Part shown: one piece after another, positions 1 through 46,644 of the stretch
Position numbering within the stretch: position 1 is the stretch's first letter
How the letters are laid out: each line of letters begins with the position of its first letter
Source: Bacteroidota bacterium
GTDB lineage: Bacteria; Bacteroidota; Ignavibacteria; UBA10030; SZUA-254
Assembly: GCA_020056225.1 (NCBI GenBank)
Contig: JAGVIE010000060.1
Span: 1 to 46,644, forward strand
Reading direction: 5' to 3'
DNA length: 46,644 nucleotides
Made by a program: the position numbers and the translations under genes
The notes under the pieces: model-generated
What the model was told of the DNA's origin: nothing
Database searches by the model: none
What the model saw: the letters and a program-made list of their open reading frames with translations, nothing else

Positions 1-31
1 ATCTTCTTCTTCTGACTTGTTCTGCTTCCAT
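1..31 (-). CDS. Putative transposase OrfA, first codons only
   Basis: An ATG at 31 on the minus strand follows AAGGAG about nine bases upstream and reads MEAEQVRRRR up to the window edge. The identical start is at 46615 on the plus strand. Short basic N-termini like this are usual for the first reading frame of IS3-type elements. Only ten residues are visible, so the product is inferred from position inside the element. Confidence 0.5.
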   Translation of the reverse strand, partial: MEAEQVRRRR

Positions 32-97
32 TTCGGACTTCTCCTTTTCTCTAATATACTGGCTTTTCTCTCTGTCCGAAAATTAGGGGGAAGATCA
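1..97 (-). mobile_element. Left end of an IS3-family-like insertion sequence (truncated by window edge)
   Basis: Bases 2-97 are an exact reverse complement of 46549-46644, so the same element end lies at both window edges, reading outward. On the minus strand the element starts TGATCTTCCCCC and continues to a GGACAG motif. This resembles the TG-starting left inverted repeats of IS3-family elements, which often carry CCC and GGACA blocks. An AAGGAG ribosome-binding site and an ATG at 31 follow. The family assignment rests on end sequence and layout only, because the transposase body lies outside the window. Confidence 0.7.
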
Positions 98-291
98 CTT
101 ACTGCTTGAATACCTGGTTTCAGTTTTACTGCAATTTCTCGATCCACATATTGCACCTTTTGATTATTCCAGATAGTTGTTTTAATCTCTTTTCCTGCAA
201 TGAGATTTTGAGTAAAGCATGTATCTGATAATACAGTTAAATATACTGCGAATAATAAAACGCAGCCCAGTAAAATTTTATATGTCTTCAT
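98..291 (-). pseudogene. Secreted protein gene, N-terminal part, interrupted by the IS
   Basis: An ATG at 291 with AAAGGAG about seven bases upstream opens a frame of about 65 codons before the IS end at 97. The first 28 residues form a signal peptide (MKTYKILLGCVLLFAVYLTV, then a stretch ending near FTQ). The mature part contains VQYVDREIAVKLKPGIQ, which resembles the N-terminal prodomain of fervidolysin/subtilisin-like proteases, where 'GEILVKFKPG'-type sequence is common. The frame stays open through the IS end to the window edge, but codons below 98 come from the element. I infer a secreted protease precursor broken by insertion. The family call is weak; the truncation is clear. Confidence 0.5.
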
Positions 292-9592: not shown

Positions 9593-10546
9593 TCAGAATT
9601 TCCCCGTCTTCCACTTCTGTGCGTACTCTTCAACATTTTCTTTTGTTATGATATCGAGACCCGAGTCAATTACGGGTTGTGCTGGTATTTTACCTTCTTT
9701 AAACTCTTTCAACAGTCTTATACTTTCATAACCCCAGCCCCATAGTTTTTGTCCCATTAAAACTTGCACGTATCCTTGCCGAATGTAATCAAGTTGCTCG
9801 GGCAATGCATCTATAGAAACGACAAACAGATCGCCCGGTTTCTTCGCTGCAAACGGACCCGGCGGCGGTGTGAAGAGCGCCCAAGCACCGGGTAATATCC
9901 AACCTTTAAGATCGGGATGTGCTTGAATTGCCGCTTCCATAACACTTACACCTTTGTTCACATCATCGTAACAATATTCTGTCGCAACAACTTTAATATC
10001 GGGATAAGTTTTGAAGTACTCAAGAATTCCCTGGCGGCGTTCTTCGAGATTCGGCGCGCCCGGCGTTCCCATCAGCATTGCTACATTTCCTTTTGTTCCC
10101 ATCAGCTTCACAAGATGCTCTGCCATCTGTTTGCCGCTTGGGAAGTTGGCTGTTCCGTAGTAAGCAAATCGTTTGCTCTTTGGAGCGTCCGAATCGAAGC
10201 AAACAACCGGAATTCCCGCATCTACAGCTTTGTTAATTGACTCAGTAAGTGCATCGGCATCGTTGACGGAAACTGCGATACCATCGACTTTCTTCTCGAT
10301 TAAGCTCTCGATGATTTGTGCCTGTTCGACTGCATCAGACTTTACCGGCGCGAAACGTTGAACTTCTATTTTTCCGTTACCTAAATCTTTTGCAGCCGCT
10401 TGAGCCGCAGTCCATGCAAGCTGAAAGACAGGGTTATCCAAAAGTTTTGGAACAAAAGCGAAAACTAATGTCTTCTCATCTTGTTTTTTGCCGCAACCGG
10501 AGAGAAGAAGTATGACTGCAACAACGATAGATAAATATTTTTTCAT
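9593..10546 (-). CDS. Second periplasmic sugar-binding lipoprotein (CUT2 type)
   Basis: Lipobox LLLSGCGKK anchors the mature protein at about Cys18. The chain continues LVFAFVPKLLDNPVFQLAWTA, then LIEKKVDGIAVSVNDADALT and IPVVCFDSDAPKSKRFAYYGT, typical of rhamnose/autoinducer-2/ribose binding proteins. It is only distantly similar to the binding protein encoded next, so it is not a recent tandem copy. GAGG precedes the ATG at 10546 by eight bases; an ATG two codons upstream is too close to that site. The 5' end overlaps the stop of a 52-codon frame that bridges from the ROCO-TIR gene. Two binding proteins with one ATPase suggest two ligands or affinities feeding one importer. Confidence 0.92.
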   Translation of the reverse strand: MKKYLSIVVAVILLLSGCGKKQDEKTLVFAFVPKLLDNPVFQLAWTAAQAAAKDLGNGKIEVQRFAPVKSDAVEQAQIIESLIEKKVDGIAVSVNDADALTESINKAVDAGIPVVCFDSDAPKSKRFAYYGTANFPSGKQMAEHLVKLMGTKGNVAMLMGTPGAPNLEERRQGILEYFKTYPDIKVVATEYCYDDVNKGVSVMEAAIQAHPDLKGWILPGAWALFTPPPGPFAAKKPGDLFVVSIDALPEQLDYIRQGYVQVLMGQKLWGWGYESIRLLKEFKEGKIPAQPVIDSGLDIITKENVEEYAQKWKTGKF

Positions 10547-10701
10547 TTGCATTTCCTCAAGTTATTATTTGAATTTTTTTGTTTGACCTCCTGTACCGAT
10601 ACCCCTTCGACTTCACTCGGGTTGAAATAGGAACAACCCTCTCCTGCTTCGGTAAGGAGATTATAGGATAAGTGTTTATGTGATATTGTTTGACAGATCA
10701 T
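10543..10701 (-). pseudogene. Kinase-start remnant fused to REP-like sequence, bridging two operon genes
   Basis: A 52-codon frame begins MICQTISH, matching the first eight residues of the kinases at 28109 and 30442. Its ATG overlaps the ROCO-TIR stop (ATGA, 10698-10701), the junction type seen between the two intact kinases. After the His codon the sequence becomes CCTATAATCTCC...GGAGAGGGTT, the REP-like repeat also found beside the fragment at 30456-30548. Its TGA overlaps the binding-protein ATG at 10546. Most likely a decayed kinase 5' end; the preserved frame could pass ribosomes on to the binding-protein gene, but there is no sign of a functional peptide. Confidence 0.6.
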
Positions 10702-13454
10702 GAGAGAATCTCAGTTTTTGCGTTCGCCGAACTGTCGCGATTCTTTCGAAGTTCCTCAACGACTTGCTCGATACCTTCCGAAACGTTGCTCCATGCTGCA
10801 TCTCGGTCTTTCCATGTTTTGACAGGTTTACCTTCTTTCGGCAACCCTTGCAGCTTACCAAGTGGCGACGTGGTCCATTTAACTTTTCGGACAATCACCG
10901 GTATCACCCTCGCATCGCTGCTATCATGCCGTTCCAATGCCCGTTTCATTTCTACGTCGTAGCAGTAATCGGAAGCGATAAAATCTGCGCTGATAAGCAA
11001 GAGAATTATATCCGCTCGTTCAAGATTCTCGTCGATCTTATCTCTCCATTCCTCACTCGGATTAATCTTCCTATCATGCCAAATCTCGATCAGTCCATTC
11101 CGCTTCAAGAGTTTTAAATGTATTTCCAGCTGCTCTCGATACCGTTCATCCTTGTGGGAGTAGCTGATAAACACGCGAACTGGTCGAGCGATTGATGGTG
11201 TCCCCAAGATGTCACGGAGCTTTAAAACTTCAACATACTGTCGAATTTTGAGCGCACCTTCTAAATCAACATCTGTGAGCATTCTGCTTACATCAAGATC
11301 GACAACATCGTTACCGACAACCTTTTGAGTGGTATCGATACCATTCTGCGCCATCACCATGAGCTCTTTATGTGAAACGACCACGTTGGGATGATCGGGA
11401 AGAGGAACCATTTCAAGCGGCTGGAGATTTCGGATATCCTGATGAATCCGTTCAAAGTCGGACCGGATGATCGCAAGCAAACGGCGCCGCCCTTCGGGTT
11501 TACCGGAAACGGATATCAAGACCTTTTTTTCTTGAGGATCTGCTTTGACAAGAGCCCTACTTTCCTCAAACTGCAGTATGACTCCCGTACGCCAGCGCGG
11601 AGAATTTTCGCTTAGCACATGTGTCCGCACGATAAATCTCGGTAACAATCCTTCAGGAAGAATTGGATAATGATACTGAAAATTAAGGCATTCGGTTGGG
11701 TTGAACTCACGGGACGCTTTCGGTTCCTGTTTGTCGAGAAGCTCCGGGATAAGATAGCGACCGTCGGATTCCGGAAAAGTGAAGCAAAGCTCGAACCTCT
11801 TCATCAAGTCCAGAAGGAACCCTCTCATCTTTGGAGGATAGGTCTTGCTGTCCAATACTTTTGATATATCCTTACTATGGATTTCCCCTTTTTGTTTCTC
11901 AAGTTTCTTGGAGTTCAGAATTTTATAAATTCCGGTGGTTACCCAGTGAGGGTTCAGCACGTGCGTATCGTTCAATCGTGGATCGTCTTTGTAGTTCAAG
12001 GCGATTCCTAACTCGTGGAGGAAACCAGCAAGCTGGTCTTGTGCTTTTTCGTCTTTCTCCCCATGTTTCGCGCAGAATTCCCGGAATTCCTTGTAGCTCA
12101 GGAAATCCTTTTTGGACTCCGGGAGCTTCCTCTTGATTTCGAACCATGTTGCCGGGAACGATGCCCTCAGGTTTTCTAATCTCGAGGTTTCTCGCTCGAT
12201 GATTGCGCGAAGCTGCTCGATCCCACTACCTGTCTCACAGTCGGTCTTGACAAAGTCTTTGATTGATGGATACTTCTCCTGAAGAGCCCTGCGGTTGAGG
12301 TCGAAAGGATGTTCTTTGATCTTGTTCAGAACAATAATGATGGGAGAATTTCCACCGAATGCTGCGATAAGCTTGAGCCAGTATTCCGCATCCGCATCCT
12401 CACCTCCCTCTCTGCCGTTGAGCACGAGCAGGTACAAACTCCGCTGGCTCAGGAAGAACTGGTGAGTGGCGTGCATAATCTCCTGGCCCCCGAAATCCCA
12501 AATGTTGAGCTTTACATTTCTCTTGCGTTTCAGCGTAAGCGGCCATTCAGTAATCTTAATTCCTTCAGTTTTTCTCTCCCGTTTACTGAACTTTTTGTAG
12601 ACAAGTCTGTTAACGAGTGACGTCTTGCCGACTGCGCCACGGCCAACCAAAATAAGCTTCGCCTCATTGAGCGGTCTCTTCCCACCACGAGTCCGGAAGT
12701 AATAGTCGAGGATGTCTGCGGGTTTTGTGAGATTAGATTTATCGTCGAAATCAGATGAACCCAATACTTCAGGTGGCAAACCGAGCGCATCGTTGCCATG
12801 CAGGTAAAGCTCTTCTAGCATTGAAAGCCTACGGAGCGATTCAGGTAATGCAATCAGGCGATTATTTTCTGCCTTAAGTTTCCTTAACTGGCTCAACTGC
12901 CCAAGCGATTCCGGCAAAGTAGTTATTTGGTTATCTTCAATATAGATACTTTCGAGTTTATGAAGGGATCCAATTGAATCTGGAAGAGCCACTAGTTTGT
13001 TACCCCAGACGCATAAGATTCGAAGTTCCTTAAGTACTCCTAAAGAATTAGGCAGCGATTGGAAATTGTTGCTTTGAAAATAAATTTGCCTAAGTTGACT
13101 TAGTTGACTGATCCACTCTGGAAAAACTTCCAATTGGTTAGCCACAGCCGAAAGAACCTGTAATTCATTCAATTTGCCGATGCTTCTTTCAAGAATAAGC
13201 TGCGGAATAAAGTTGAGTTCTAGTTCTCGAAGGTGGTTCAATTGACCGATGCTCTCCGGCAAGCTCGTCAGTTGATTGTTAGACAGAAACAATTTCTGCA
13301 GCCGGGACAACTGTCCGATACTCTCCGGCAGTTCGGTTAAACCGAGACCTCCCAAATCCAATTCCGTCGCACCTGTCTTGAGAGCTTTCTGGATGCGCTT
13401 CTCGGCTTCAGCGAAAGCTTCTTCAGGTGTGCGTTTTTTCTTTTGTTTGCTCAT
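10698..13454 (-). CDS. LRR-ROC-COR-TIR (ROCO family) signalling protein
   Basis: A 918-residue, probably cytoplasmic protein. Residues about 30-235 are about nine 23-residue leucine-rich repeats of the LTxLPESIGQLxxLxxLxLxxN type. A Roc GTPase domain follows, with P-loop GRGAVGKTS (271-279), switch II WDFGGQE (319-325) and base-recognition motif NKIK (377-380). A COR-like region spans about 440-740. The C-terminal 160 residues are a TIR domain starting VRVFISYSHKDE; the acidic residue in ASDYCYDVEMKRAL (about Glu835) sits where NAD-cleaving TIR enzymes have their catalytic Glu. AGGAGG lies about 12 bases before the ATG. The LRR presumably senses, Roc-COR switches and TIR acts, either as an NADase or a protein-interaction module. 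It interrupts a sugar-transport operon and is flanked by kinase-start fragments, suggesting recent arrival. Confidence 0.9.
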   Translation of the reverse strand: MSKQKKKRTPEEAFAEAEKRIQKALKTGATELDLGGLGLTELPESIGQLSRLQKLFLSNNQLTSLPESIGQLNHLRELELNFIPQLILERSIGKLNELQVLSAVANQLEVFPEWISQLSQLRQIYFQSNNFQSLPNSLGVLKELRILCVWGNKLVALPDSIGSLHKLESIYIEDNQITTLPESLGQLSQLRKLKAENNRLIALPESLRRLSMLEELYLHGNDALGLPPEVLGSSDFDDKSNLTKPADILDYYFRTRGGKRPLNEAKLILVGRGAVGKTSLVNRLVYKKFSKRERKTEGIKITEWPLTLKRKRNVKLNIWDFGGQEIMHATHQFFLSQRSLYLLVLNGREGGEDADAEYWLKLIAAFGGNSPIIIVLNKIKEHPFDLNRRALQEKYPSIKDFVKTDCETGSGIEQLRAIIERETSRLENLRASFPATWFEIKRKLPESKKDFLSYKEFREFCAKHGEKDEKAQDQLAGFLHELGIALNYKDDPRLNDTHVLNPHWVTTGIYKILNSKKLEKQKGEIHSKDISKVLDSKTYPPKMRGFLLDLMKRFELCFTFPESDGRYLIPELLDKQEPKASREFNPTECLNFQYHYPILPEGLLPRFIVRTHVLSENSPRWRTGVILQFEESRALVKADPQEKKVLISVSGKPEGRRRLLAIIRSDFERIHQDIRNLQPLEMVPLPDHPNVVVSHKELMVMAQNGIDTTQKVVGNDVVDLDVSRMLTDVDLEGALKIRQYVEVLKLRDILGTPSIARPVRVFISYSHKDERYREQLEIHLKLLKRNGLIEIWHDRKINPSEEWRDKIDENLERADIILLLISADFIASDYCYDVEMKRALERHDSSDARVIPVIVRKVKWTTSPLGKLQGLPKEGKPVKTWKDRDAAWSNVSEGIEQVVEELRKNRDSSANAKTEILS

Positions 13455-13470
13455 GGTTGTGTAATTCCTC

Positions 13471-13509
13471 CTAAAGAATCCGATAATGTGATATTTTTTG
13501 TCCGATCAT
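13471..13509 (-). pseudogene. Twelve-codon kinase-start mini-ORF upstream of the ROCO-TIR gene
   Basis: ATG at 13509 reads MIGQKISHYRIL and then stops at TAG (13471-13473). This is the start of the Ser/Thr kinase family (MIGQTISHYKIL in the intact gene at 28109) cut by a stop codon. The stop overlaps the AGGAGG ribosome-binding site of the ROCO-TIR gene, whose ATG lies 17 bases further on, so terminating ribosomes would be delivered at that site. It may be a mere remnant or may have been kept as a coupling leader. Confidence 0.6.
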
Positions 13510-13511
13510 AG

Positions 13512-13568
13512 TTAATCCTAAACTAACCCTCTCTCGAACAGGGATAGTTATTATAGAGTGAGGATTTA
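13512..13568 (-). repeat. REP-like intergenic repeat
   Basis: Read on the minus strand this is CCTCACTCTATAAT...GAGAGAGGGTTAG...GGATTAACT, running directly into the kinase-start mini-ORF. The same order of blocks (CCTCACCCTATAAT...GAGAGGGTAG...GGGTTAACT) lies upstream of the kinase start at 30442. It fills the gap between the permease stop and the ROCO-TIR leader. Confidence 0.5.
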
Positions 13569-13575
13569 TTAGATA

Positions 13576-14589
13576 TCATCGTTTCGTTTTCCTATCCAAT
13601 ATAACAGCTAACAAAATTACAAGTCCGATTGCGACCTGCTGCCAGTAAGCAGAGACATTCAGAAGAACCAAACCATTCCGCAGAATGCCCATCAGCAATG
13701 AACCTACAATCACGCCGAGAATCGTTCCCCGTCCGCCGCTCAAACTTACACCGCCAATCACAGCCGCCGCAATAACATCGAGTTCATAACCAAGACCTGA
13801 TGTCGATTGACCGACACCGAAACGCGCTGTAAATAAAACTCCGGCAATCCCTGCCGCAAGCCCGCATAAAGTATAAACCAAAATTTTCATTCTTCCAACA
13901 TTTACCCCGCTGAAGTATGACGCTTCTTCGTTTCCGCCGATTGCATAAATATATCGTCCCCATTTTGTAGATTTGAGAAAGTACCCGATAGCGATAGCGA
14001 AGATTATCAGGATTAATATTGGAATTGGAATATTAAAGATAGCCCCTTGCCCGATAGCAATAAATTCCGGCGGAAGGTTTCTTATTGTTTCTCCACCTGT
14101 CAATGCAAATGCAAGTCCGCGGGCAATGCTCATCATTCCTAATGTTGCAATGAACGGAGGTAATATTGCTTCGGTGACTAATATTCCGTTAACAAATCCA
14201 CTAAGTAATCCGACGGCAAGACCCGCAATCGATGCGGAGAAAATATCTATACCATTATTCAAAAGAACAGCGGTAACAACACCGGAGAAGCCGAGAATAG
14301 AGCCGACCGATAAATCAATACCGCCCGAAATAATTACAGGCGCTACGCCAATTGCCATTATCGCGATGAATGAAAGAGCGCGAATGACCTGAGAAATATT
14401 AGACCAGTTTAGAAAAGTAGAATCGAACGAACCATTACTTCCGAAGGAAGAGGTGAGAATCGTTAAAAGGAGCACTTCTACGATCAGGGCGAGCCAGATG
14501 CCGAGATGTTTGGATTTCAAGAGCTTTAATTCGTTAATTCGACTACTTATGAGTTGCAATATGTTACAAATAAAAGAGGGAAAAATCAA
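13576..14589 (-). CDS. RbsC-like sugar ABC transporter permease (first gene of operon)
   Basis: About 337 residues with about ten hydrophobic helices. CUT2 permease motifs are GGIDLSVGSILGFSGV, IYAIGGNEEASYFSGV and LSGGRGTILGVIVGSLLMGILRNG. It ends in basic DRKTKR at the cytoplasmic face. The only upstream start candidate is TTG at 14589, as an in-frame stop lies five codons further upstream; later TTG codons at about 14559 and 14520 are also possible, so the N-terminus is uncertain. It is separated from its partner genes by the ROCO-TIR gene, yet clearly belongs with the RbsA/RbsB/RbsC set downstream. It is divergent from the cytochrome gene at 14725. Confidence 0.88.
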   Translation of the reverse strand: MIFPSFICNILQLISSRINELKLLKSKHLGIWLALIVEVLLLTILTSSFGSNGSFDSTFLNWSNISQVIRALSFIAIMAIGVAPVIISGGIDLSVGSILGFSGVVTAVLLNNGIDIFSASIAGLAVGLLSGFVNGILVTEAILPPFIATLGMMSIARGLAFALTGGETIRNLPPEFIAIGQGAIFNIPIPILILIIFAIAIGYFLKSTKWGRYIYAIGGNEEASYFSGVNVGRMKILVYTLCGLAAGIAGVLFTARFGVGQSTSGLGYELDVIAAAVIGGVSLSGGRGTILGVIVGSLLMGILRNGLVLLNVSAYWQQVAIGLVILLAVILDRKTKR

Positions 14590-25014: not shown

Positions 25015-25128
25015 CTAAAGCTCCGTATCATTGCGAAGTTTTGAGCTTTCAGCTTGCAACACCACGCCTATTCCACTCTGACCCGGCTTCCGAAGAATCT
25101 TGTAGTGTGATATTGTTTGGCTGATCAT
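25015..25128 (-). pseudogene. Decayed 5' fragment of a Ser/Thr kinase gene
   Basis: ATG at 25128 opens 37 codons that align without gaps to the first 37 residues of the kinases at 28109 and 30442. It begins MISQTISHYKILRKPGQSG against MIGQTISHYKILEKLGEGG; further matches are GVV, A, KL, D and L at the corresponding places. The P-loop glycines are partly lost, and a TAG follows. The fragment starts 57 bases after the stop of the intact kinase gene in the same orientation, so it is the leftover of a further gene in the array. Confidence 0.8.
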
Positions 25129-25184: not shown

Positions 25185-28109
25185 TCATCTCGTTGCTACT
25201 TCTTCGAGTTTTGCCAAACGTTTCTTTGCATCAATATAATCGGGTAAATCTTTATCGGCATTTTTCCAGAGGTTCAAAAATATCCTGTAATTTTCTATCG
25301 CTTGTTTTTTATCTAATTTCTTCTCGTAAACTTTACCTAAAAGATAGAAACTCTTAGGATAAAAAATGGATCTCGACCCGACCAAGTTATCAAAATCGTG
25401 GAGCGATTGTAATTTCTTTAATGATAAAACCGCCTTATCTAAATATCCGGCATCATACTGGCACTCCGCCAATGGATAAAGAACAAATATCTGTGCAAAT
25501 TGACCACTAATCTTTAGCGCTGAATCAGCAAGTGATTCGGCATTAGCACAATTATGCTTCGCACTTTGAATCATTGAAAGCAGGCATACGCGCCACCAGA
25601 TAACCTCCGTTTTACTAATACTGTCAACTAGTGCATAATCACCATGATATACTTGGAGCAATGATAGCCCTCCCAAATAATTACCATTTGCAATTTTATC
25701 CATATTAGGAAATGTTTTTTCGGCTTCCTTCCACGCGTCCTCAATATTTTTCCATCCATTATACATAATCATTGCTTTGAACATCCTATTAGTTTCAGCA
25801 TTTGAAGTATCCTTTAACTGCAAATATAATTCGATGCATTTATCAGACGCAAGCATTGCTTCTTTATACTTTCCAATATATGGATAAAATAAAGCAAGAC
25901 CTCCGTAACCTGTACGTTTAGCTCTTATAGTTTGATTCTCATTTGTAAGTGCTTTCAATTCCTTTTCTGCAGCATCATACTGTCCTTTATACGCGTATAA
26001 ACATGACAATAATCTTACGACATAATAATTATCCGGCATTATTTCTTTGTCAGTTTTCAATTTAGTAATTGCCAGATCGATTTTCCCCAATAAGAGGTAA
26101 GCTTCAACAACAAGTTGGTATGCCTCGGACGATCCAGAAACTGATACGTAACGCTGCGCAACCTCAGCCATCTTGTCATATCGTTTTATACTTCGATATG
26201 CCCATGATAAATGTTGAAGAGCACGTTCAAAGTTAGGATCCATTGACAATACTTTTTCAAGATATTTGACCGCATCATCGTACTTGTCCAAATGCCACGA
26301 ATAATCTCCGATGAGGTATGTCATTTCTTTATCGGTGGGATAAATTTTTTCCATCTCTCTTAATATTGCCAGAGAAGCTTCCATGCTTCCCTGAATGCGA
26401 ATAAATTCCGAACGGGCAAGATATCTTTCGCGTTCAGGAATCCGATCAATCAGCGTAATTGCCTTACGCATCGGTCCTTTTGCAAGCTCTTCGCGTCCGA
26501 TATTCCAAGCGATAGCGTAAGCAAGACGATAATAAGCAAGTCCAAAGAGAGAATCAATTGCAATGGCTTTTTCAAATTCTTCGGTTGCTTCTTTAAATTT
26601 CAGCTTATTTATTAAATCTTCTCCGAGGAAATAATGCTGATATGCTTCAAGATTGGTGGTGGTGATATCTGCAATTTTCTTATTGCTTTCTTGAATTTTT
26701 TCAGATGATTCCTGCAGTCCCGTTCTGGTTCTTTCTGCTACCTCGTCAATAAGCGACGGGATAGACTCTTTCCCTTTTTTGTCTGCCTTCGCCGCAAAGA
26801 CATGCTTTCCTGTTTTTATGTCGATTACTTTCAAATCGACTGTGTACATATCACCAAATTTCTTAACAGTTCCAACAGCCATCAAATTTATATTAGAGCT
26901 TGCACAGATTGCTTTTCCTTTTTCCTCATCTATATGATCGACATCTCGCATATTCAATTGATTTAGAATATCAAACATTCTCGATCGGGTCAACACTTCG
27001 AGTCGTCGCGATTGTTCAAGGTCGGTTATTAACAAACCGGATAGTCCATCCAATTCTTTATCGGCTGTTTCATTAATAAAATCTATAACAGCTATAGGAA
27101 TTTTCGTTCCGCTTTCGGCTGCTTGCCTGAAAAAGAATAGATATGCTGCCAACAACAGAATCAATACACTCACAACGATTCCACCATACTTGAAATATTT
27201 TTTCTTTTCTTTCGATTGAGTTTCAGCGATACTTTCACCGGCAAGTGGAGTTGTAGCATAGGTTGCCTTGGCATACTCGAGTTTCTTCCGCTCACGTCTT
27301 AAATCAGAAAGCAAATCATCGATATGTTGATATCTGTCATCTCTGTCCTTCTCCAATGCTTTCGAGATGATATGCTGAAGTTCATCTGTTACTTTCTCGT
27401 TATAGCGGGTAAGTGGCTGGGGTTCTTCGTTCAAGATCGAGTATTGAATTGCTGCAATGTGTTCTCCACGGAAAGGTAAGTGTATTGTTAACATTTCGTA
27501 TAGTACTACACCAAACGAAAATATATCGGAGCGATGATCAACTTCTTCCCCACGCGCTTGCTCCGGCGACATATATGCGGCTGTTCCCAATGTTGAGCCA
27601 GCTTTCGTTAATTTCGTTCCGCCCTTTAGCTTGGCAAGTCCGAAGTCGGTGATCTTCGCTTGCCCCTTCGAGGTAACGATAATGTTCTCGGGTTTGATGT
27701 CGCGGTGGACGACACCTTTCTCGTGGGCTACTGCAAGTCCTTCACAAATCTGAATACCAATTTCGAGGACTTTCTTAATCGATGGTGGCTCTGCTCCGAT
27801 GAATTGTTTAAGTGTTTTCCCCTCTACATACTCCATTGCTATGAATACCTGCTTGCCCGCTCCGGCGGGATTATCGTGTTCACCGATCTCATGGACGACA
27901 GCGATGTTCTGATGTGTTAGAGCAGCGGCTGCGCGCGCTTCATGGTAGAAGCGTTCTTTCTCGCTCGGATCGCTTGTGAGATAATGTGGAAGGAACTTCA
28001 GCGCAACATCTCGATCGAGCTTGGTGTCGTGGGCTTTATAGACGATGCCCATGCCACCTTCGCCTAACTTTTCTAAAATTTTATAATGCGATATTGTTTG
28101 TCCGATCAT
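25185..28109 (-). CDS. Receptor-type Ser/Thr protein kinase with FlgO/CsgG-like and TPR domains
   Basis: A 974-residue protein. The cytoplasmic kinase domain (about 8-275) is complete: P-loop GEGGMG (16-21), VAIK-type Lys38, catalytic HRD at 135-137, DFG at 155-157, APE-equivalent SPEQ. One transmembrane helix (about 309-327) leads to an extracytoplasmic half. This begins with a FlgO/TolB-N-like domain (IPIAVIDFINETADKELDGL..., with LLITDLEQSRRLEVL) and continues with about ten TPR-like helical repeats to the C-terminus. The ATG overlaps the upstream kinase stop as ATGA. The layout suggests that periplasmic binding or assembly status is relayed to cytoplasmic phosphorylation, probably opposed by the PP2C-type phosphatase encoded upstream. 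Confidence 0.9.
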   Translation of the reverse strand: MIGQTISHYKILEKLGEGGMGIVYKAHDTKLDRDVALKFLPHYLTSDPSEKERFYHEARAAAALTHQNIAVVHEIGEHDNPAGAGKQVFIAMEYVEGKTLKQFIGAEPPSIKKVLEIGIQICEGLAVAHEKGVVHRDIKPENIIVTSKGQAKITDFGLAKLKGGTKLTKAGSTLGTAAYMSPEQARGEEVDHRSDIFSFGVVLYEMLTIHLPFRGEHIAAIQYSILNEEPQPLTRYNEKVTDELQHIISKALEKDRDDRYQHIDDLLSDLRRERKKLEYAKATYATTPLAGESIAETQSKEKKKYFKYGGIVVSVLILLLAAYLFFFRQAAESGTKIPIAVIDFINETADKELDGLSGLLITDLEQSRRLEVLTRSRMFDILNQLNMRDVDHIDEEKGKAICASSNINLMAVGTVKKFGDMYTVDLKVIDIKTGKHVFAAKADKKGKESIPSLIDEVAERTRTGLQESSEKIQESNKKIADITTTNLEAYQHYFLGEDLINKLKFKEATEEFEKAIAIDSLFGLAYYRLAYAIAWNIGREELAKGPMRKAITLIDRIPERERYLARSEFIRIQGSMEASLAILREMEKIYPTDKEMTYLIGDYSWHLDKYDDAVKYLEKVLSMDPNFERALQHLSWAYRSIKRYDKMAEVAQRYVSVSGSSEAYQLVVEAYLLLGKIDLAITKLKTDKEIMPDNYYVVRLLSCLYAYKGQYDAAEKELKALTNENQTIRAKRTGYGGLALFYPYIGKYKEAMLASDKCIELYLQLKDTSNAETNRMFKAMIMYNGWKNIEDAWKEAEKTFPNMDKIANGNYLGGLSLLQVYHGDYALVDSISKTEVIWWRVCLLSMIQSAKHNCANAESLADSALKISGQFAQIFVLYPLAECQYDAGYLDKAVLSLKKLQSLHDFDNLVGSRSIFYPKSFYLLGKVYEKKLDKKQAIENYRIFLNLWKNADKDLPDYIDAKKRLAKLEEVATR

Positions 28110-30442
28110 TTCTCCAATCCTATCTTTTTCAGCAATGCGATATACCTCGGGTCCGAACGAAGGTCATCCAAAAGCGGTTCCGATTTCAAATACAATAGCC
28201 AAATGGCTCGTTCTTTGTACGCTTTCTCGAGCCAATCGAAAGCTTTGTCTTTATCCCCAAGTCCATAATAGACAAAAGCAATGTGAATAGACACCGAATA
28301 GCCGTGCTTCGAGAATTCAAACAATTCATTAAGGACCCTCGAAGCTTCCTTCTTTTTTCCTGCCCGTGCATAAGCATACCCAAGGTGCGATAATCCAAAT
28401 GGACTATTGACAGTGAGTGATCTAACTTTTTGAAACTCTGTGATAGCTTTGTCGAATTTACCCTGCGCTGCATATACCGAGCCTAAATTGATATGGGCAC
28501 TCGGGAAGTTTGGATCGAGAGCAATTGTTTTATGTAATTGATCTATTGCTTTATCATACTGCCGCATCCAGTGATACGTGAGTCCAATATTCGCCCCTAT
28601 GATTAGTGAAAGCGGATCAAGCTCATCTGCTCGCTTGATTTCTGCTAGACTTTCTTCAAATCTACCAAGATAGCGTAATTGAATGCTATACCATTGATGT
28701 GTAGTTGGATAACTCGGATTAAGCTCGATTGCTTTCTTGTACTCACTTTCGGCACCTTGCCAATCCCAAACATAATGAGTTTTAACCAATCCTAAGACGG
28801 CATGAGCTTCTGCAAGTGTTGTGTCAAGTTCCAATGCTTTGTTTGCCAAAGTTTCTGCTTTAGAATAAATTTCTCTTGATTTTCGTTCGGAGTATTGAGG
28901 AAGTGTAACATACACTGAAGCCAAACCCGCATATGCAAGAGCATAGTTTGTATCAATCGTGATAGCTTGATTGTAATAATTCAATGCTGTTTGTAGATCA
29001 GCCGATGTGCGCCTGTTCCAATGATAACGCCCTTTTAGGAAGAGTTGGTATGCATTTGTATTTTCAGTCTGCTTTTTTTCGATACGTTTTTTTTCTTCTG
29101 GGGAGAATTTCGCTTTCAATGCAGAAGCAATTTCCTTCGCTACATCGCTTTGAATTGCAAAAACATCTTTCATCTCCCTGTCATATGTCTCAGCCCAGAG
29201 GTGTCGGTCTGTTTCCGCATCAATCAACTGGCTTGCAATCCTGATACGATTGCCCGAGTGTCTGACGCTTCCTTCAAGGACAACGCCCGCATTTAGCTCT
29301 TTGCCAATTTCTTTCAAAGATTTCTTTGTATCCTTATACTGGATCATCGTTGTTCGTGAGATGACGTTGAGGTCGGCGATCTTCGACAATTGAATCAGGA
29401 TATCTTCCATTATGCCATCACTAAAGTATTCATCTTCCTGATCACCGCTCAAGTTGTTGAATGGAAGCACGGCGATGGTTTTATTGTTGGTTAAAATTGA
29501 GGTTGTTTTGGGATAGAATATATATATGACAATCGAGATAAGAACCACTGTAACAGTGGCGGCTATCCATTGTATATTTTTTGAGCGTTCTTTGTTGGAT
29601 TTTCCTATATGAGATAAATCATACTCAACAGATTTCAATTCCATCAAAATTTCATCTACGTTCTGATACCGTTTCGTTTTATCCTTTTCTAAACAACGAT
29701 TGATAATTTGTTCAAACGCTTGAGGCACATTTCGTCTTAATGATTTTACAGGAGATGGATTTTCGTTCAGAATCGAATAACTCAAAGCTGCTTCAAACTC
29801 ACCTTTGAACGGTAGATGTGATGTTATAAGCTCGTACAACACGACTCCAAGTGAAAAGATATCAGTCCGATGGTCAACATCTTCACCTCGTATCTGTTCC
29901 GGCGACATATAAGCTGCAGTCCCAAGAGTGCTGCCTGTTTTCGTAAGCTGTGTGCCACCACGAAGTTTTGCCAAGCCAAAATCTGTAAGCTTTACTTTTC
30001 CATCCTCCGTCAGCATCATGTTGTCTGTTTTTACGTCCCTATGGATAATTTGATGCCGGTGAGCATGAGCCAATGCTTCAGCCATTTGTATACCGTAATT
30101 AAAGACTTCACTAATCGGAAACTCCTTGTCTTCCGATTTCAGTTGCTTCAATTTAGACTTCAGCGTACCACCAGAGATGTATTCAAGCACAAGATACTTC
30201 TGTCCGCTGAACTCATCGACATCATAGATTGTAGCAATGTTGGGATGATTTAATGCGGAGATTGTCCTGGCTTCCTGCTCGAATCGTTGCACATCTTCAA
30301 AAGATGCTGTAAGATTGGTCGGTAAAAACTTCAGTGCAACGTCACGGTCGAGCTTGGTGTCGTGGGCTTTGTACACCACGCCCATGCCACCTTCGCCTAA
30401 CTTTTCCAGTATCTTATAGTGCGAAACAGTTTGACCTATCAT
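28106..30442 (-). CDS. Receptor-type Ser/Thr protein kinase with TolB-N/FlgO-like and TPR domains
   Basis: A 778-residue paralogue of the next gene. Kinase motifs: GEGGMG (16-21), Lys38 in DVALKFL, HRD at 134-136, DFG at 154-156, SPEQ at 180-183. A transmembrane helix (about 291-310) precedes a domain beginning IAVLPFNNLSGDQEDEYFSDG, typical of proteins that link a kinase or adenylate cyclase to TPRs (TolB-N/FlgO-like). Several TPR units follow (for example AWDW...AESEYKKAIELNPSYP and AIDQLHKTIALDPNFPSAH). The kinase half is close to its neighbour's while the sensor half differs, so the pair probably arose by duplication with replacement of the sensor. GAAGGG six bases upstream serves as ribosome-binding site. 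Confidence 0.9.
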   Translation of the reverse strand: MIGQTVSHYKILEKLGEGGMGVVYKAHDTKLDRDVALKFLPTNLTASFEDVQRFEQEARTISALNHPNIATIYDVDEFSGQKYLVLEYISGGTLKSKLKQLKSEDKEFPISEVFNYGIQMAEALAHAHRHQIIHRDVKTDNMMLTEDGKVKLTDFGLAKLRGGTQLTKTGSTLGTAAYMSPEQIRGEDVDHRTDIFSLGVVLYELITSHLPFKGEFEAALSYSILNENPSPVKSLRRNVPQAFEQIINRCLEKDKTKRYQNVDEILMELKSVEYDLSHIGKSNKERSKNIQWIAATVTVVLISIVIYIFYPKTTSILTNNKTIAVLPFNNLSGDQEDEYFSDGIMEDILIQLSKIADLNVISRTTMIQYKDTKKSLKEIGKELNAGVVLEGSVRHSGNRIRIASQLIDAETDRHLWAETYDREMKDVFAIQSDVAKEIASALKAKFSPEEKKRIEKKQTENTNAYQLFLKGRYHWNRRTSADLQTALNYYNQAITIDTNYALAYAGLASVYVTLPQYSERKSREIYSKAETLANKALELDTTLAEAHAVLGLVKTHYVWDWQGAESEYKKAIELNPSYPTTHQWYSIQLRYLGRFEESLAEIKRADELDPLSLIIGANIGLTYHWMRQYDKAIDQLHKTIALDPNFPSAHINLGSVYAAQGKFDKAITEFQKVRSLTVNSPFGLSHLGYAYARAGKKKEASRVLNELFEFSKHGYSVSIHIAFVYYGLGDKDKAFDWLEKAYKERAIWLLYLKSEPLLDDLRSDPRYIALLKKIGLEK

Positions 30443-30455
30443 AGTTAACCCTTCG

Positions 30456-30548
30456 CTACCCTCTCCCTGTCACCTGCGTGACATTCCTCTCCCAATTTGG
30501 GAGAGGGATTATAGGGTGAGGGTCATGTGAAATAGTTTGTCCGATCAT
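30456..30548 (-). pseudogene. Kinase-start remnant fused to REP-like palindrome
   Basis: ATG at 30548 reads MIGQTISH, identical to the first eight residues of the kinase at 28109. It then passes into CACCCTATAATCCC and a palindromic repeat, ending at TAG after 30 codons. The intact kinase ATG at 30442 follows 13 bases later, and the phosphatase stop lies 11 bases before. It looks like the surviving first codons of a lost kinase gene, with the same fusion point as at 10701. Confidence 0.65.
30459..30524. repeat. REP-like element with two perfect palindromes
   Basis: CCTCTCCCAATTTGGGAGAGG (30486-30506) is a perfect 21-base inverted repeat, and TGTCAC-ctgc-GTGACA (30468-30483) is a second stem. 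Outer blocks CCCTCTCCC and GGGTGAGGG flank them. This style of TATAGGGTGAGGG / CCCTCTCCC intergenic repeat is typically present in many copies in a genome. It could form a hairpin in the mRNA between the phosphatase and kinase genes. Confidence 0.65.
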
Positions 30549-46310: not shown

Positions 46311-46548
46311 TCACTTTTCTTTAATTTCTGATCGAACTACGGGGAAATTAAACTGGAACCTTTCCACAACTATTTGCTTTACTAATTCAAAAAACCAATT
46401 ATCAGACATCGGGGATACATAGACACTTTCGATCAGTTTATTTAAGTCTACCCTTACTCCTATTCCTTTGTCAAACTTTGGTTCGCCACCAAACGTTTTG
46501 TACTGATTGAATATAGCTACTCTCAATTCTTTTTCAAAAGTATAAAAC
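46311..46548 (-). pseudogene. C-terminal fragment of a DUF2971-like protein, adjacent to the IS
   Basis: A minus-strand frame runs out of the IS end at 46548 and continues 79 codons to a stop at 46311. Visible segments are FYTFEKELRVAIFNQYK, FDKGIGVRVDLNKLIESVYV and SPMSDNWFFELVKQIV. The order 'VxVDLNxLIExIxxSP ... WFxxLVKxxV ... VxRS' resembles the C-terminus of DUF2971 proteins, a family of unknown function often found in defence and accessory regions. The 5' part is missing; either the gene was cut by insertion or it resumes on the far side of the element. The family call is tentative. Confidence 0.5.
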
Positions 46549-46644
46549 TGATCTTCCCCCTAATTTTCGGACAGAGAGAAAAGCCAGTATATTAGAGAAA
46601 AGGAGAAGTCCGAAATGGAAGCAGAACAAGTCAGAAGAAGAAGA
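46549..46644 (+). mobile_element. Left end of the same IS3-family-like element (truncated by window edge)
   Basis: An exact inverted copy of bases 2-97. It begins TGATCTTCCCCC, contains GGACAG, then AAGGAG and ATG at 46615. As at the other edge, the element is oriented outward, so the two copies flank the 46.4-kb segment in opposite directions. This is most simply an assembly ending at multi-copy elements, though such a pair could also invert or mobilise the segment. Confidence 0.7.
46615..46644 (+). CDS. Putative transposase OrfA, first codons only
   Basis: Reads MEAEQVRRRR from an ATG preceded by AAGGAG and is cut by the window edge. Identical to the start on the minus strand at 31. Confidence 0.5.
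   Translation, partial: MEAEQVRRRR

What the first reader, a model, noticed from the sequence alone, without database searches (positions are those of the whole stretch)
10543..13509. ROCO-TIR gene is exactly bracketed by kinase-start fragments: a transplanted kinase-array member?
Upstream of the LRR-ROC-COR-TIR gene, MIGQKISHYRIL-stop ends on its ribosome-binding site. Downstream, an ATGATC kinase start overlaps its TGA exactly as the intact kinases overlap at 28106-28109. Inference: the gene came from a tandem array of kinase-type genes and was inserted into a sugar operon together with the edges of its former neighbours.
Basis: partly seen in the sequence, partly recalled or inferred. Interest (0 to 1): 0.75.

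Follow-up and report, generated by a model that had tools for sequence, protein, structure and literature searches.

The report
Defence-like gene bracketed by kinase starts
A gene for a sensor protein of the Parkinson-LRRK2 type with a TIR domain sits inside a sugar-uptake operon between two copied beginnings of protein-kinase genes, and the same kinase-beginning stubs recur in related bacteria, where they look like tiny stepping-stone genes that lead ribosomes over inserted DNA to the next gene.

Summary
The LRR-Roc-COR-TIR gene (10698-13454, minus strand) has a kinase-start stub on each side: MIGQKISHYRIL-stop ends in its ribosome-binding site, and ATGATCTGTCAAACAATATCACAT overlaps its TGA. 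The second stub also opens a 52-codon ORF that ends, again as ATGA, on the start of the sugar-binding-protein gene. In the six family relatives where permease and binding protein could be seen side by side, ROCO gene and stubs are absent; three have a REP-like palindrome there, which survives beside the block here. So the block is an insertion. Stubs are not unique to it: in 11 of 15 family genomes I found 41 "kinase stub - insert - next kinase start" units; inserts are palindromes, RAYT-like transposase genes, a GIY-YIG gene. In 24 of 41 the stub ORF stops exactly on the next start (ATGA). Best reading: stubs are 5' remnants of array kinases, kept because they relay translation, and the ROCO gene entered the operon with two of them and REP edges. 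Not shown: that ROCO genes elsewhere live in kinase arrays (none seen at 88 loci), how stubs arise, or that they are translated. Partly supported; new variant of a known kind (coupling leader ORFs).

The parts
13576..14589 (-). sugar ABC permease (BPD_transp_2), upstream neighbour; its TGA (13578-13576) overlaps an ATG (ATGA) of an 18-codon ORF (ORF read by eye)
13510..13563 (-). REP1: degenerate REP-like palindrome whose right end (GGATTAACT) abuts the first stub
   Evidence: 66 nt tested: score 36 against 30443-30524, shuffle maximum 27, 0 of 1000; weaker against two of three relatives' gaps
13471..13509 (-). stub 1: kinase start MIGQKISHYRIL-stop; stop overlaps the ROCO ribosome-binding site
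10698..13454 (-). LRR-Roc-COR-TIR (ROCO) gene, 918 aa, intact
10678..10701 (-). stub 2: kinase start MICQTISH, ATGA overlap with ROCO stop
10543..10701 (-). 52-codon ORF begun by stub 2, read through REP2, stop overlaps the binding-protein ATG (10546)
10552..10677 (-). REP2 and leader, orthologous to the permease/binding-protein gap of relatives
   Evidence: score 75 against G007, shuffle maximum 43, 0 of 1000
9593..10546 (-). periplasmic sugar-binding protein (Peripla_BP_4); start proposed at 10546 rather than 10552
30525..30548 (-). stub 3: kinase start, followed directly by a REP-like palindrome
30443..30524 (-). REP-like palindrome between stub 3 and the intact kinase start
28106..30442 (-). 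intact TPR Ser/Thr kinase, MIGQTVSHYKILEKLGEGG start
25185..28109 (-). intact TPR Ser/Thr kinase, MIGQTISHYKILEKLGEGG start, ATGA overlap with the preceding kinase
25015..25128 (-). decayed kinase start (MISQTISHYKILRKPGQSGIGVVLQAESSK...) after the array

Best explanation
The ROCO-TIR gene was inserted between the permease and binding-protein genes of a sugar operon as a block REP - kinase stub - ROCO - kinase stub, joined at the REP-like palindrome that already lay there. The stubs belong to a family-wide class: the first 7-19 or so codons of MIGQTISHYKILEKLGEGG kinases, left from array kinases that lost their bodies to inserts and deletions. They persist because each works as a tiny leader cistron: ribosomes start on the stub, read through the insert and stop on or next to the start codon of the next gene, which they then translate. 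Shown: insertion, stubs, their recurrence, frame and ATGA bias. Inferred: loss of kinase bodies as origin, REP recombination as the route into the operon, ribosome relay as the reason for retention.
For: Insertion: permease and binding protein lie about 105-135 nt apart in five family genomes and about 650 nt apart in a sixth, none with ROCO or stub; REP2 is orthologous to the gap of relatives. Array edges: TTAACT|ATG and CACAT|palindrome junctions match 30443 and 30525. Recurrence: 41 units in 11 of 15 genomes. Coupling: stub stop overlaps next start as ATGA in 24 of 41; distance is in the coupling frame in 27 of 41 (binomial 2e-5); counting similar inserts once, 12 of 17 (p 0.0019). Stub in coupling frame, units under 260 nt: that frame open in 24 of 25; other frames of the same inserts open in 2 and 1 of 25. 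Remnant origin: stubs are no closer to the adjacent start than to other kinases of the genome (36 units, mean 6.08 and 5.95 differences in 24); L200:785 looks like a kinase with start and C-terminal end but no body, ending in ATGA (by eye).
Against: No ROCO relative is seen near a MIGQ kinase (88 loci). Stub 1 breaks at codon 12, not at the two common break zones. The coupling frame is open in 7 of 12 short units whose stub is in another frame and in 42 of 93 kinase starts without a stub, so part of the openness may belong to the inserts or to ordinary overlapping genes. Ten of the 41 stub ORFs stop 12 nt or more before the next start, and one reads past it by 95 nt. Shine-Dalgarno-like sequences stand before many of the next starts (by eye), so the relay may be unnecessary. 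Two genomes with many kinases (G008, G012) have no unit. REP1 is a weak match: 24 and 4 of 1000 shuffles reach its score against G011 and G007.
Confidence: 0.55

Rival explanations
1. Passive debris: stubs are only the surviving 5' ends of dead kinases; ATGA overlaps are inherited from overlapping array genes and have no present role. The ROCO block carries two such scraps.
For: Stubs without coupling exist (25128; L150:5398; L151:6558). Intact kinase starts overlap the preceding gene by ATGA in 18 of 121, so overlaps are common. 7 of 12 out-of-frame short units still have an open coupling frame.
Against: Among the 11 REP-type units seven keep the coupling frame although their lengths differ (107, 107, 110, 116, 128, 146, 146 nt; the other four are 106, 123, 123 and 150). 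Positions 1 and 2 of stub codons differ from intact kinases about as little as intact kinases differ among themselves (1.53 against 1.31 per pair; the search pattern favours this).
Confidence: 0.27
2. Target-site duplication: mobile elements insert at the kinase start and copy 24 nt of it, so that each insert, the ROCO gene included, is flanked by direct repeats.
For: Breaks cluster at codons 7-9 and 17-19. L148 (1 of 24 differences) and L160 (2 of 24) have stubs very like the adjacent start.
Against: Across 36 units the stub is no closer to the adjacent start than to other kinases of the genome. In 12 loci with REPs elsewhere in this genome no copy of the downstream gene start was found upstream of the REP (best 11-14 of 24 matches, below each shuffle maximum; 19 for the kinase at 30442). 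Unrelated kinds of insert share the site.
Confidence: 0.08
3. The kinase start is a captured expression module: stub plus cargo travels as a unit, like an integron cassette behind attI1 ORF-11, and the ROCO gene is a cargo gene.
For: Cargo includes RAYT-like genes fused in frame to a MIGQTISH-type stub in three genera (L225, L226, L227; L233 has an altered stub and L234 one out of frame), GIY-YIG ORFs (L162, L219) and ROCO. Four stubs with four different inserts stand in tandem in G004 (L149).
Against: No recombinase or recombination site was identified or searched for; the RAYT cases share one junction and may be one event; the five other RAYT-like genes found show no stub (one, L230, is truncated).
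Confidence: 0.1

Closest known systems
attI1 ORF-11 of class 1 integrons
   Same: Short ORF with a good initiation region at a recombination site that raises translation of the inserted cassette by coupling; stop codon supplied by the cassette (PMC8876359, passages read).
   Different: Here the short ORF is the 5' end of a kinase gene and occurs at many places; integrase and attC sites were not searched for.
Termination-reinitiation at ATGA overlaps
   Same: Stop and start overlap by 4 nt (PMC6728339, abstract and passages).
   Different: There the upstream partner is a full gene; here it is a remnant that runs through a palindrome.
Rickettsia palindromic elements
   Same: Palindromic elements that stay readable inside coding sequence (PMC10969869, passages).
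   Different: Those give in-frame fusions within proteins; these lie between a stub and a fresh start.
REP/REPIN elements with RAYT transposases
   Same: REP-like palindromes and a RAYT-like gene (NCBIfam REP_Tyr_transpos E 1.8e-16, 60 bits, below the 80-bit cut-off).
   Different: No proof that this RAYT moves these palindromes; no title or abstract start in the listings I saw describes the pairing with kinase stubs.
Prokaryotic Roco proteins (CtRoco, LRRK2 relatives)
   Same: LRR-Roc-COR-A-COR-B order.
   Different: Ends in a TIR domain; the tails of CtRoco and LRRK2 are recalled, not tested.

Membership tests
Roco protein family | Roc GTPase followed by COR | tested here: met
   Pfam Roc 1.3e-30, COR-A 2.1e-44, COR-B 6.3e-33; P-loop and WDFGGQ[ED] conserved among the 28 aligned sequences
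TIR-domain effector | TIR fold with the conserved glutamate of NADase-type TIRs (role of the residue recalled) | tested here: met
   TIR_2 9.2e-18; E835 identical in 28 of 28 aligned sequences, the window's own included; activity not tested
Thoeris defence | ThsB TIR together with ThsA (recalled) | tested here: inconclusive
   Only the TIR part matches a ThsB model (6.1e-59); no search for ThsA was made
Coupled leader ORF (attI1 ORF-11-like in function) | Short ORF ending on or just before the next start | tested here: met
   24 of 41 at ATGA, 5 more ending 3-4 nt before the start; stub 2 ends on 10546
Coupled leader ORF (attI1 ORF-11-like in function) | Leader is translated and raises downstream expression | not testable with these tools
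   needs expression data
Integron cassette | attC sites and integrase | not tested
   no search made
Transposon with target-site duplication | flanking copies alike because copied from one target | tested here: not met
   36 units: mean 6.08 differences to the adjacent start, 5.95 to others; two units are close (L148, L160)
REP/RAYT system | RAYT gene flanked by the REPs it moves | tested here: inconclusive
   RAYT-like genes sit in the stub slot; flanking REPs not analysed

The most novel reading that the evidence does not exclude
Kinase gene starts in this bacterial family act as a portable translation-start slot: DNA that lands behind the first 8-19 codons and ends on another start (palindromes, a transposase gene, a GIY-YIG gene, a ROCO-TIR immune-type gene) becomes a ribosome-coupled cassette, so that operons can take up cargo without losing expression of the genes behind it.
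Probability: 0.25. Interest if true: 0.75.

Novelty: new variant of a known kind. Interest (0 to 1): 0.55.

Why it matters
Insertions between operon genes can cut the downstream genes off. If gene stubs serve as ribosome relays across palindromes and cargo, dead genes gain a simple role, and there is a concrete route by which a defence-type gene can enter a housekeeping operon without silencing it. The idea is testable with a two-gene reporter. For annotation, it would explain tiny 'truncated kinase' ORFs in this family.

Tried and rejected
Target-site duplication as the general cause: rejected on 36 units. Start duplication as a by-product of any REP insertion: not seen at 12 REP loci elsewhere in the genome (the downstream starts there are first-ATG/GTG/TTG guesses). 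Codon use as proof of foreign origin: ROCO z 6.2, but the alpha-mannosidase gene 6.1. ROCO as a standing partner of MIGQ kinases: none at 88 loci with a ROCO or TIR relative (protein pattern, one loose non-kinase match in L013; that pattern misses stubs broken at codon 8, so one search repeated the test on DNA: 6 loose matches, reversed control 0, none with a MIGQ-ISH reading; kinase bodies behind them were not looked for). Flanks there are at most 4 kb, and L010, L017 and L020 are one contig. A strict two-start pattern in 98 genomes of the order hit 3 genomes, all of this family; it is insensitive, since 11 family genomes carry units. Breakpoint at codon 8 as a mere effect of the 24-nt probe: a 12-nt probe upstream of intact starts found 24 matches, of which 22 keep about 7 codons or more. 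Papers with the literal kinase start: none. The first script that listed stubs stopped with an error after its useful output. Dropped before counts: two chance matches (window 4019, L007:4492); 6 kinase starts near the end of a fetched stretch are counted neither as intact nor as stubs. Of the 59 stubs, five keep 26 or more codons and are rather truncated or frameshifted kinases. For one search, 28 of 82 sequences passed my filter (over 45% identity, reaching residue 850); L010 and L020 among them are the same gene.

Full report
Check of the observation. The ROCO gene is an intact 918-codon ORF on the minus strand, 13454 to 10698, with LRR, Roc, COR-A, COR-B and TIR domains. Upstream, 13509-13471 reads ATGATCGGACAAAAAATATCACATTATCGGATTCTTTAG, MIGQKISHYRIL-stop, and the TAG runs into the GGAGGA of the ROCO leader. 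Downstream, ATGATCTGTCAAACAATATCACAT starts at 10701 and overlaps the ROCO TGA as ATGA. The two intact kinases overlap by ATGA at 28106-28109. A kinase-start pattern of 13 bases matches 8 times in the window (expected 1.52; 0 of 100 shuffles reach 8). In the whole genome a 26-base degenerate pattern with up to three mismatches matches 15 times and its reversed control 0.

More at the site. The downstream stub opens a 52-codon ORF that runs through a REP-like palindrome and stops with TGA at 10545-10543, overlapping an ATG at 10546. That ATG begins MKKYLS..., and the relatives' genes start with ATGAA(A/G)AA at that place too, so I place the binding-protein start at 10546 instead of 10552. The chain reads: permease, REP1, stub 1, ROCO, stub 2 with REP2, binding protein, with ATGA contacts at ROCO/stub 2 and stub 2/binding protein.

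The ROCO gene is an insertion. Fourteen of 15 family genomes have a relative of the binding protein; eight besides the own genome have one of at least 74% identity. In six of the eight the permease lies just upstream in the fetched stretch (L099, L100, L101, L103, L105, L106) and none has ROCO or a stub between them; in the other two (L102, L104) no permease was in the fetched flank, so they are uninformative. The gap is about 105-135 nt in five and about 650 nt in G001, where by eye it holds a remnant that looks like an IS200-type transposase. Three gaps (G010, G011, G007) hold a REP-like palindrome; those of G004 and G003 do not, by eye. REP2 with its right flank is the orthologue of that gap: alignment score 75 against G007 with a maximum of 43 in 1000 shuffles, 66 against G011 (48) and 54 against G010 (42). 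Against the palindrome at 30443-30524 it scores 39 (1 of 1000 shuffles reaches that). REP1 matches the palindrome at 30443-30524 (36, maximum 27) and the G010 gap (39, maximum 31), but not convincingly the G011 and G007 gaps (24 and 4 of 1000 shuffles reach the score). The junction of REP1 with stub 1 (GGATTAACT|ATG) resembles that at 30443 (GGGTTAACT|ATG) and the junction of stub 2 with REP2 (CACAT|) that at 30525. So the edges of the block are of the kind seen in the kinase array of the same contig. A match to the ROCO protein occurs in 5 of 15 family genomes, most of them TIR only; the one near relative, 60% identical, is in G001 on a 3907-nt contig. A contig of the same length, L020, is titled Bacteroidetes bacterium FW602_bin.19, and the aligned parts are identical, so I take them as one. 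Relatives of 45-65% identity are scattered over many phyla (best 80 of 296), which fits horizontal spread.

The stubs are a family-wide feature. A 24-base degenerate pattern with up to 2 mismatches matches in 14 of 15 family genomes, 170 times by adding up the table. I fetched the stretches around the listed matches and those of G014 with up to 2 mismatches (the 3-mismatch matches outside those stretches were left out). In them a rule-based count gave 188 starts: 121 intact, 6 near the end of a stretch, 61 not intact, of which two were chance and dropped. Forty-one stubs in 11 genomes are followed by another kinase start within 900 nt; none of these is in G001, G002, G008 or G012. The inserts fall into 17 groups: REP-like palindromes (11 units), a second palindrome, mostly after GEGGM (7), and others, including RAYT-like genes (L160, L161) and a GIY-YIG ORF (L162:4203-4466, Pfam 1.3e-16). 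Of the stubs without a kinase start behind them two carry a RAYT-like gene (L001, L165:12901) and one a GIY-YIG ORF (L219, 1e-07). For the own-genome RAYT, Pfam gives Y1_Tnp 1.6e-06 and NCBIfam REP_Tyr_transpos 1.8e-16, below its cut-off; Pfam gave nothing for the G010 copy. In G004 four stubs with four different inserts stand in tandem before one kinase (L149).

Signs of translational coupling. In 24 of 41 units the stub ORF ends with a TGA that overlaps the next ATG; one overlaps by 7 nt, five end 3-4 nt before it, ten end 12 nt or more before it (three of these more than 250 nt), and one reads 95 nt past it. The stub-to-start distance is in the required frame in 27 of 41 (8 and 6 in the other two; p 2e-5). 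With similar inserts counted once the figure is 12 of 17 groups (p 0.0019). Among 37 units shorter than 260 nt, the coupling frame is open in 24 of 25 whose stub is in it, against 2 and 1 of 25 for the other two frames of the same inserts. Against this: it is also open in 7 of 12 units whose stub is in another frame, and in 42 of 93 kinase starts without a stub, where real overlapping genes contribute (other frames there: 13 and 16 of 93). Of six stretches folded, two REP units have strong hairpins between stub and start (z -4.3 and -4.4); the other four are weaker (z -2.0 to -0.2), REP2 with -1.3.

Where stubs come from. They are not recent target-site copies: 36 testable units differ from the adjacent start at 6.08 of 24 positions on average and from other intact kinases of the genome at 5.95, with two close exceptions (L148, L160). 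The kinase part ends mostly at codons 7-9 (23 of 59) and 17-19 (14 of 59) by a crude rule, and a shorter probe shows that this is not only a detection limit. At REP places elsewhere in the genome the REP lies within 2 nt of the upstream stop codon at 7 of 13, and no copy of the downstream start precedes it at 12 loci tested. L200:785 in G013 keeps a kinase start and a kinase-like C-terminal end with nothing between, ending in ATGA; I read it as a body deletion, by eye. I therefore favour remnants of array kinases, kept when coupling is preserved. Why the break zones exist I cannot say.

The ROCO protein. P-loop, WDFGGQ[ED] and the TIR glutamate E835 are conserved in the 28 aligned sequences (E835 in 28 of 28; one has D for E after GGQ). 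The TIR part matches a ThsB model of PADLOC (6.1e-59). A defence role is plausible by analogy and untested. A search for papers joining Roco, TIR, NADase and anti-phage listed 8 papers, none with the word Roco; an earlier search listed one that holds 'Roco protein' and 'TIR domain' (PMC7159879), whose passages place COR domains in prokaryotic conflict systems.

Known context. The nearest functional parallel is ORF-11 in the attI1 site of class 1 integrons, a short ORF that boosts translation of the inserted cassette by coupling and takes its stop codon from the cassette (PMC8876359, passages). ATGA coupling by termination-reinitiation is established (PMC6728339, abstract and passages), and palindromes that stay readable in genes are known as Rickettsia palindromic elements (PMC10969869, passages). 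I found no report of kinase-start stubs in the searches made (listings only; most subscription papers are not held).

Verdict. Insertion of the ROCO block is well supported; its origin in a kinase array is likely from its edges but not shown by any relative; the relay role is a good hypothesis with statistical support and no experiment.

Noticed in passing
window 2-100 and 46546-46644: The two contig ends are inverted copies of one 99-nt sequence (99%), probably an assembly break at a repeat.
   Followed up: no
L001:8490-9821 (own genome, contig 41): A 443-aa ORF made of repeated (M/R)KYVPAENQKYILEAA units, two genes after a sigma-factor-like ORF in the kinase cluster.
   Followed up: no
L225, L226: The RAYT-like gene fused to MIGQTISH is followed by the same RsbW-like gene in two genera, so this insertion may be old or repeated.
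   Followed up: partly
window 30548 and L165:15698: After what looks like the same RsbU-like gene end, two genera have a kinase stub broken near codon 8 by two different palindromes.
   Followed up: partly
L155:773: A short palindrome sits between codons 9 and 10 of a kinase start without any copied start: a possible first step towards a stub.
   Followed up: no
L009 (own genome, contig 33): A second TIR domain, 48% identical to that of the ROCO protein, in a 380-codon frame.
   Followed up: no
L238-L249: REP-like palindromes of this genome often begin within 2 nt of a stop codon, some supplying its last base.
   Followed up: partly
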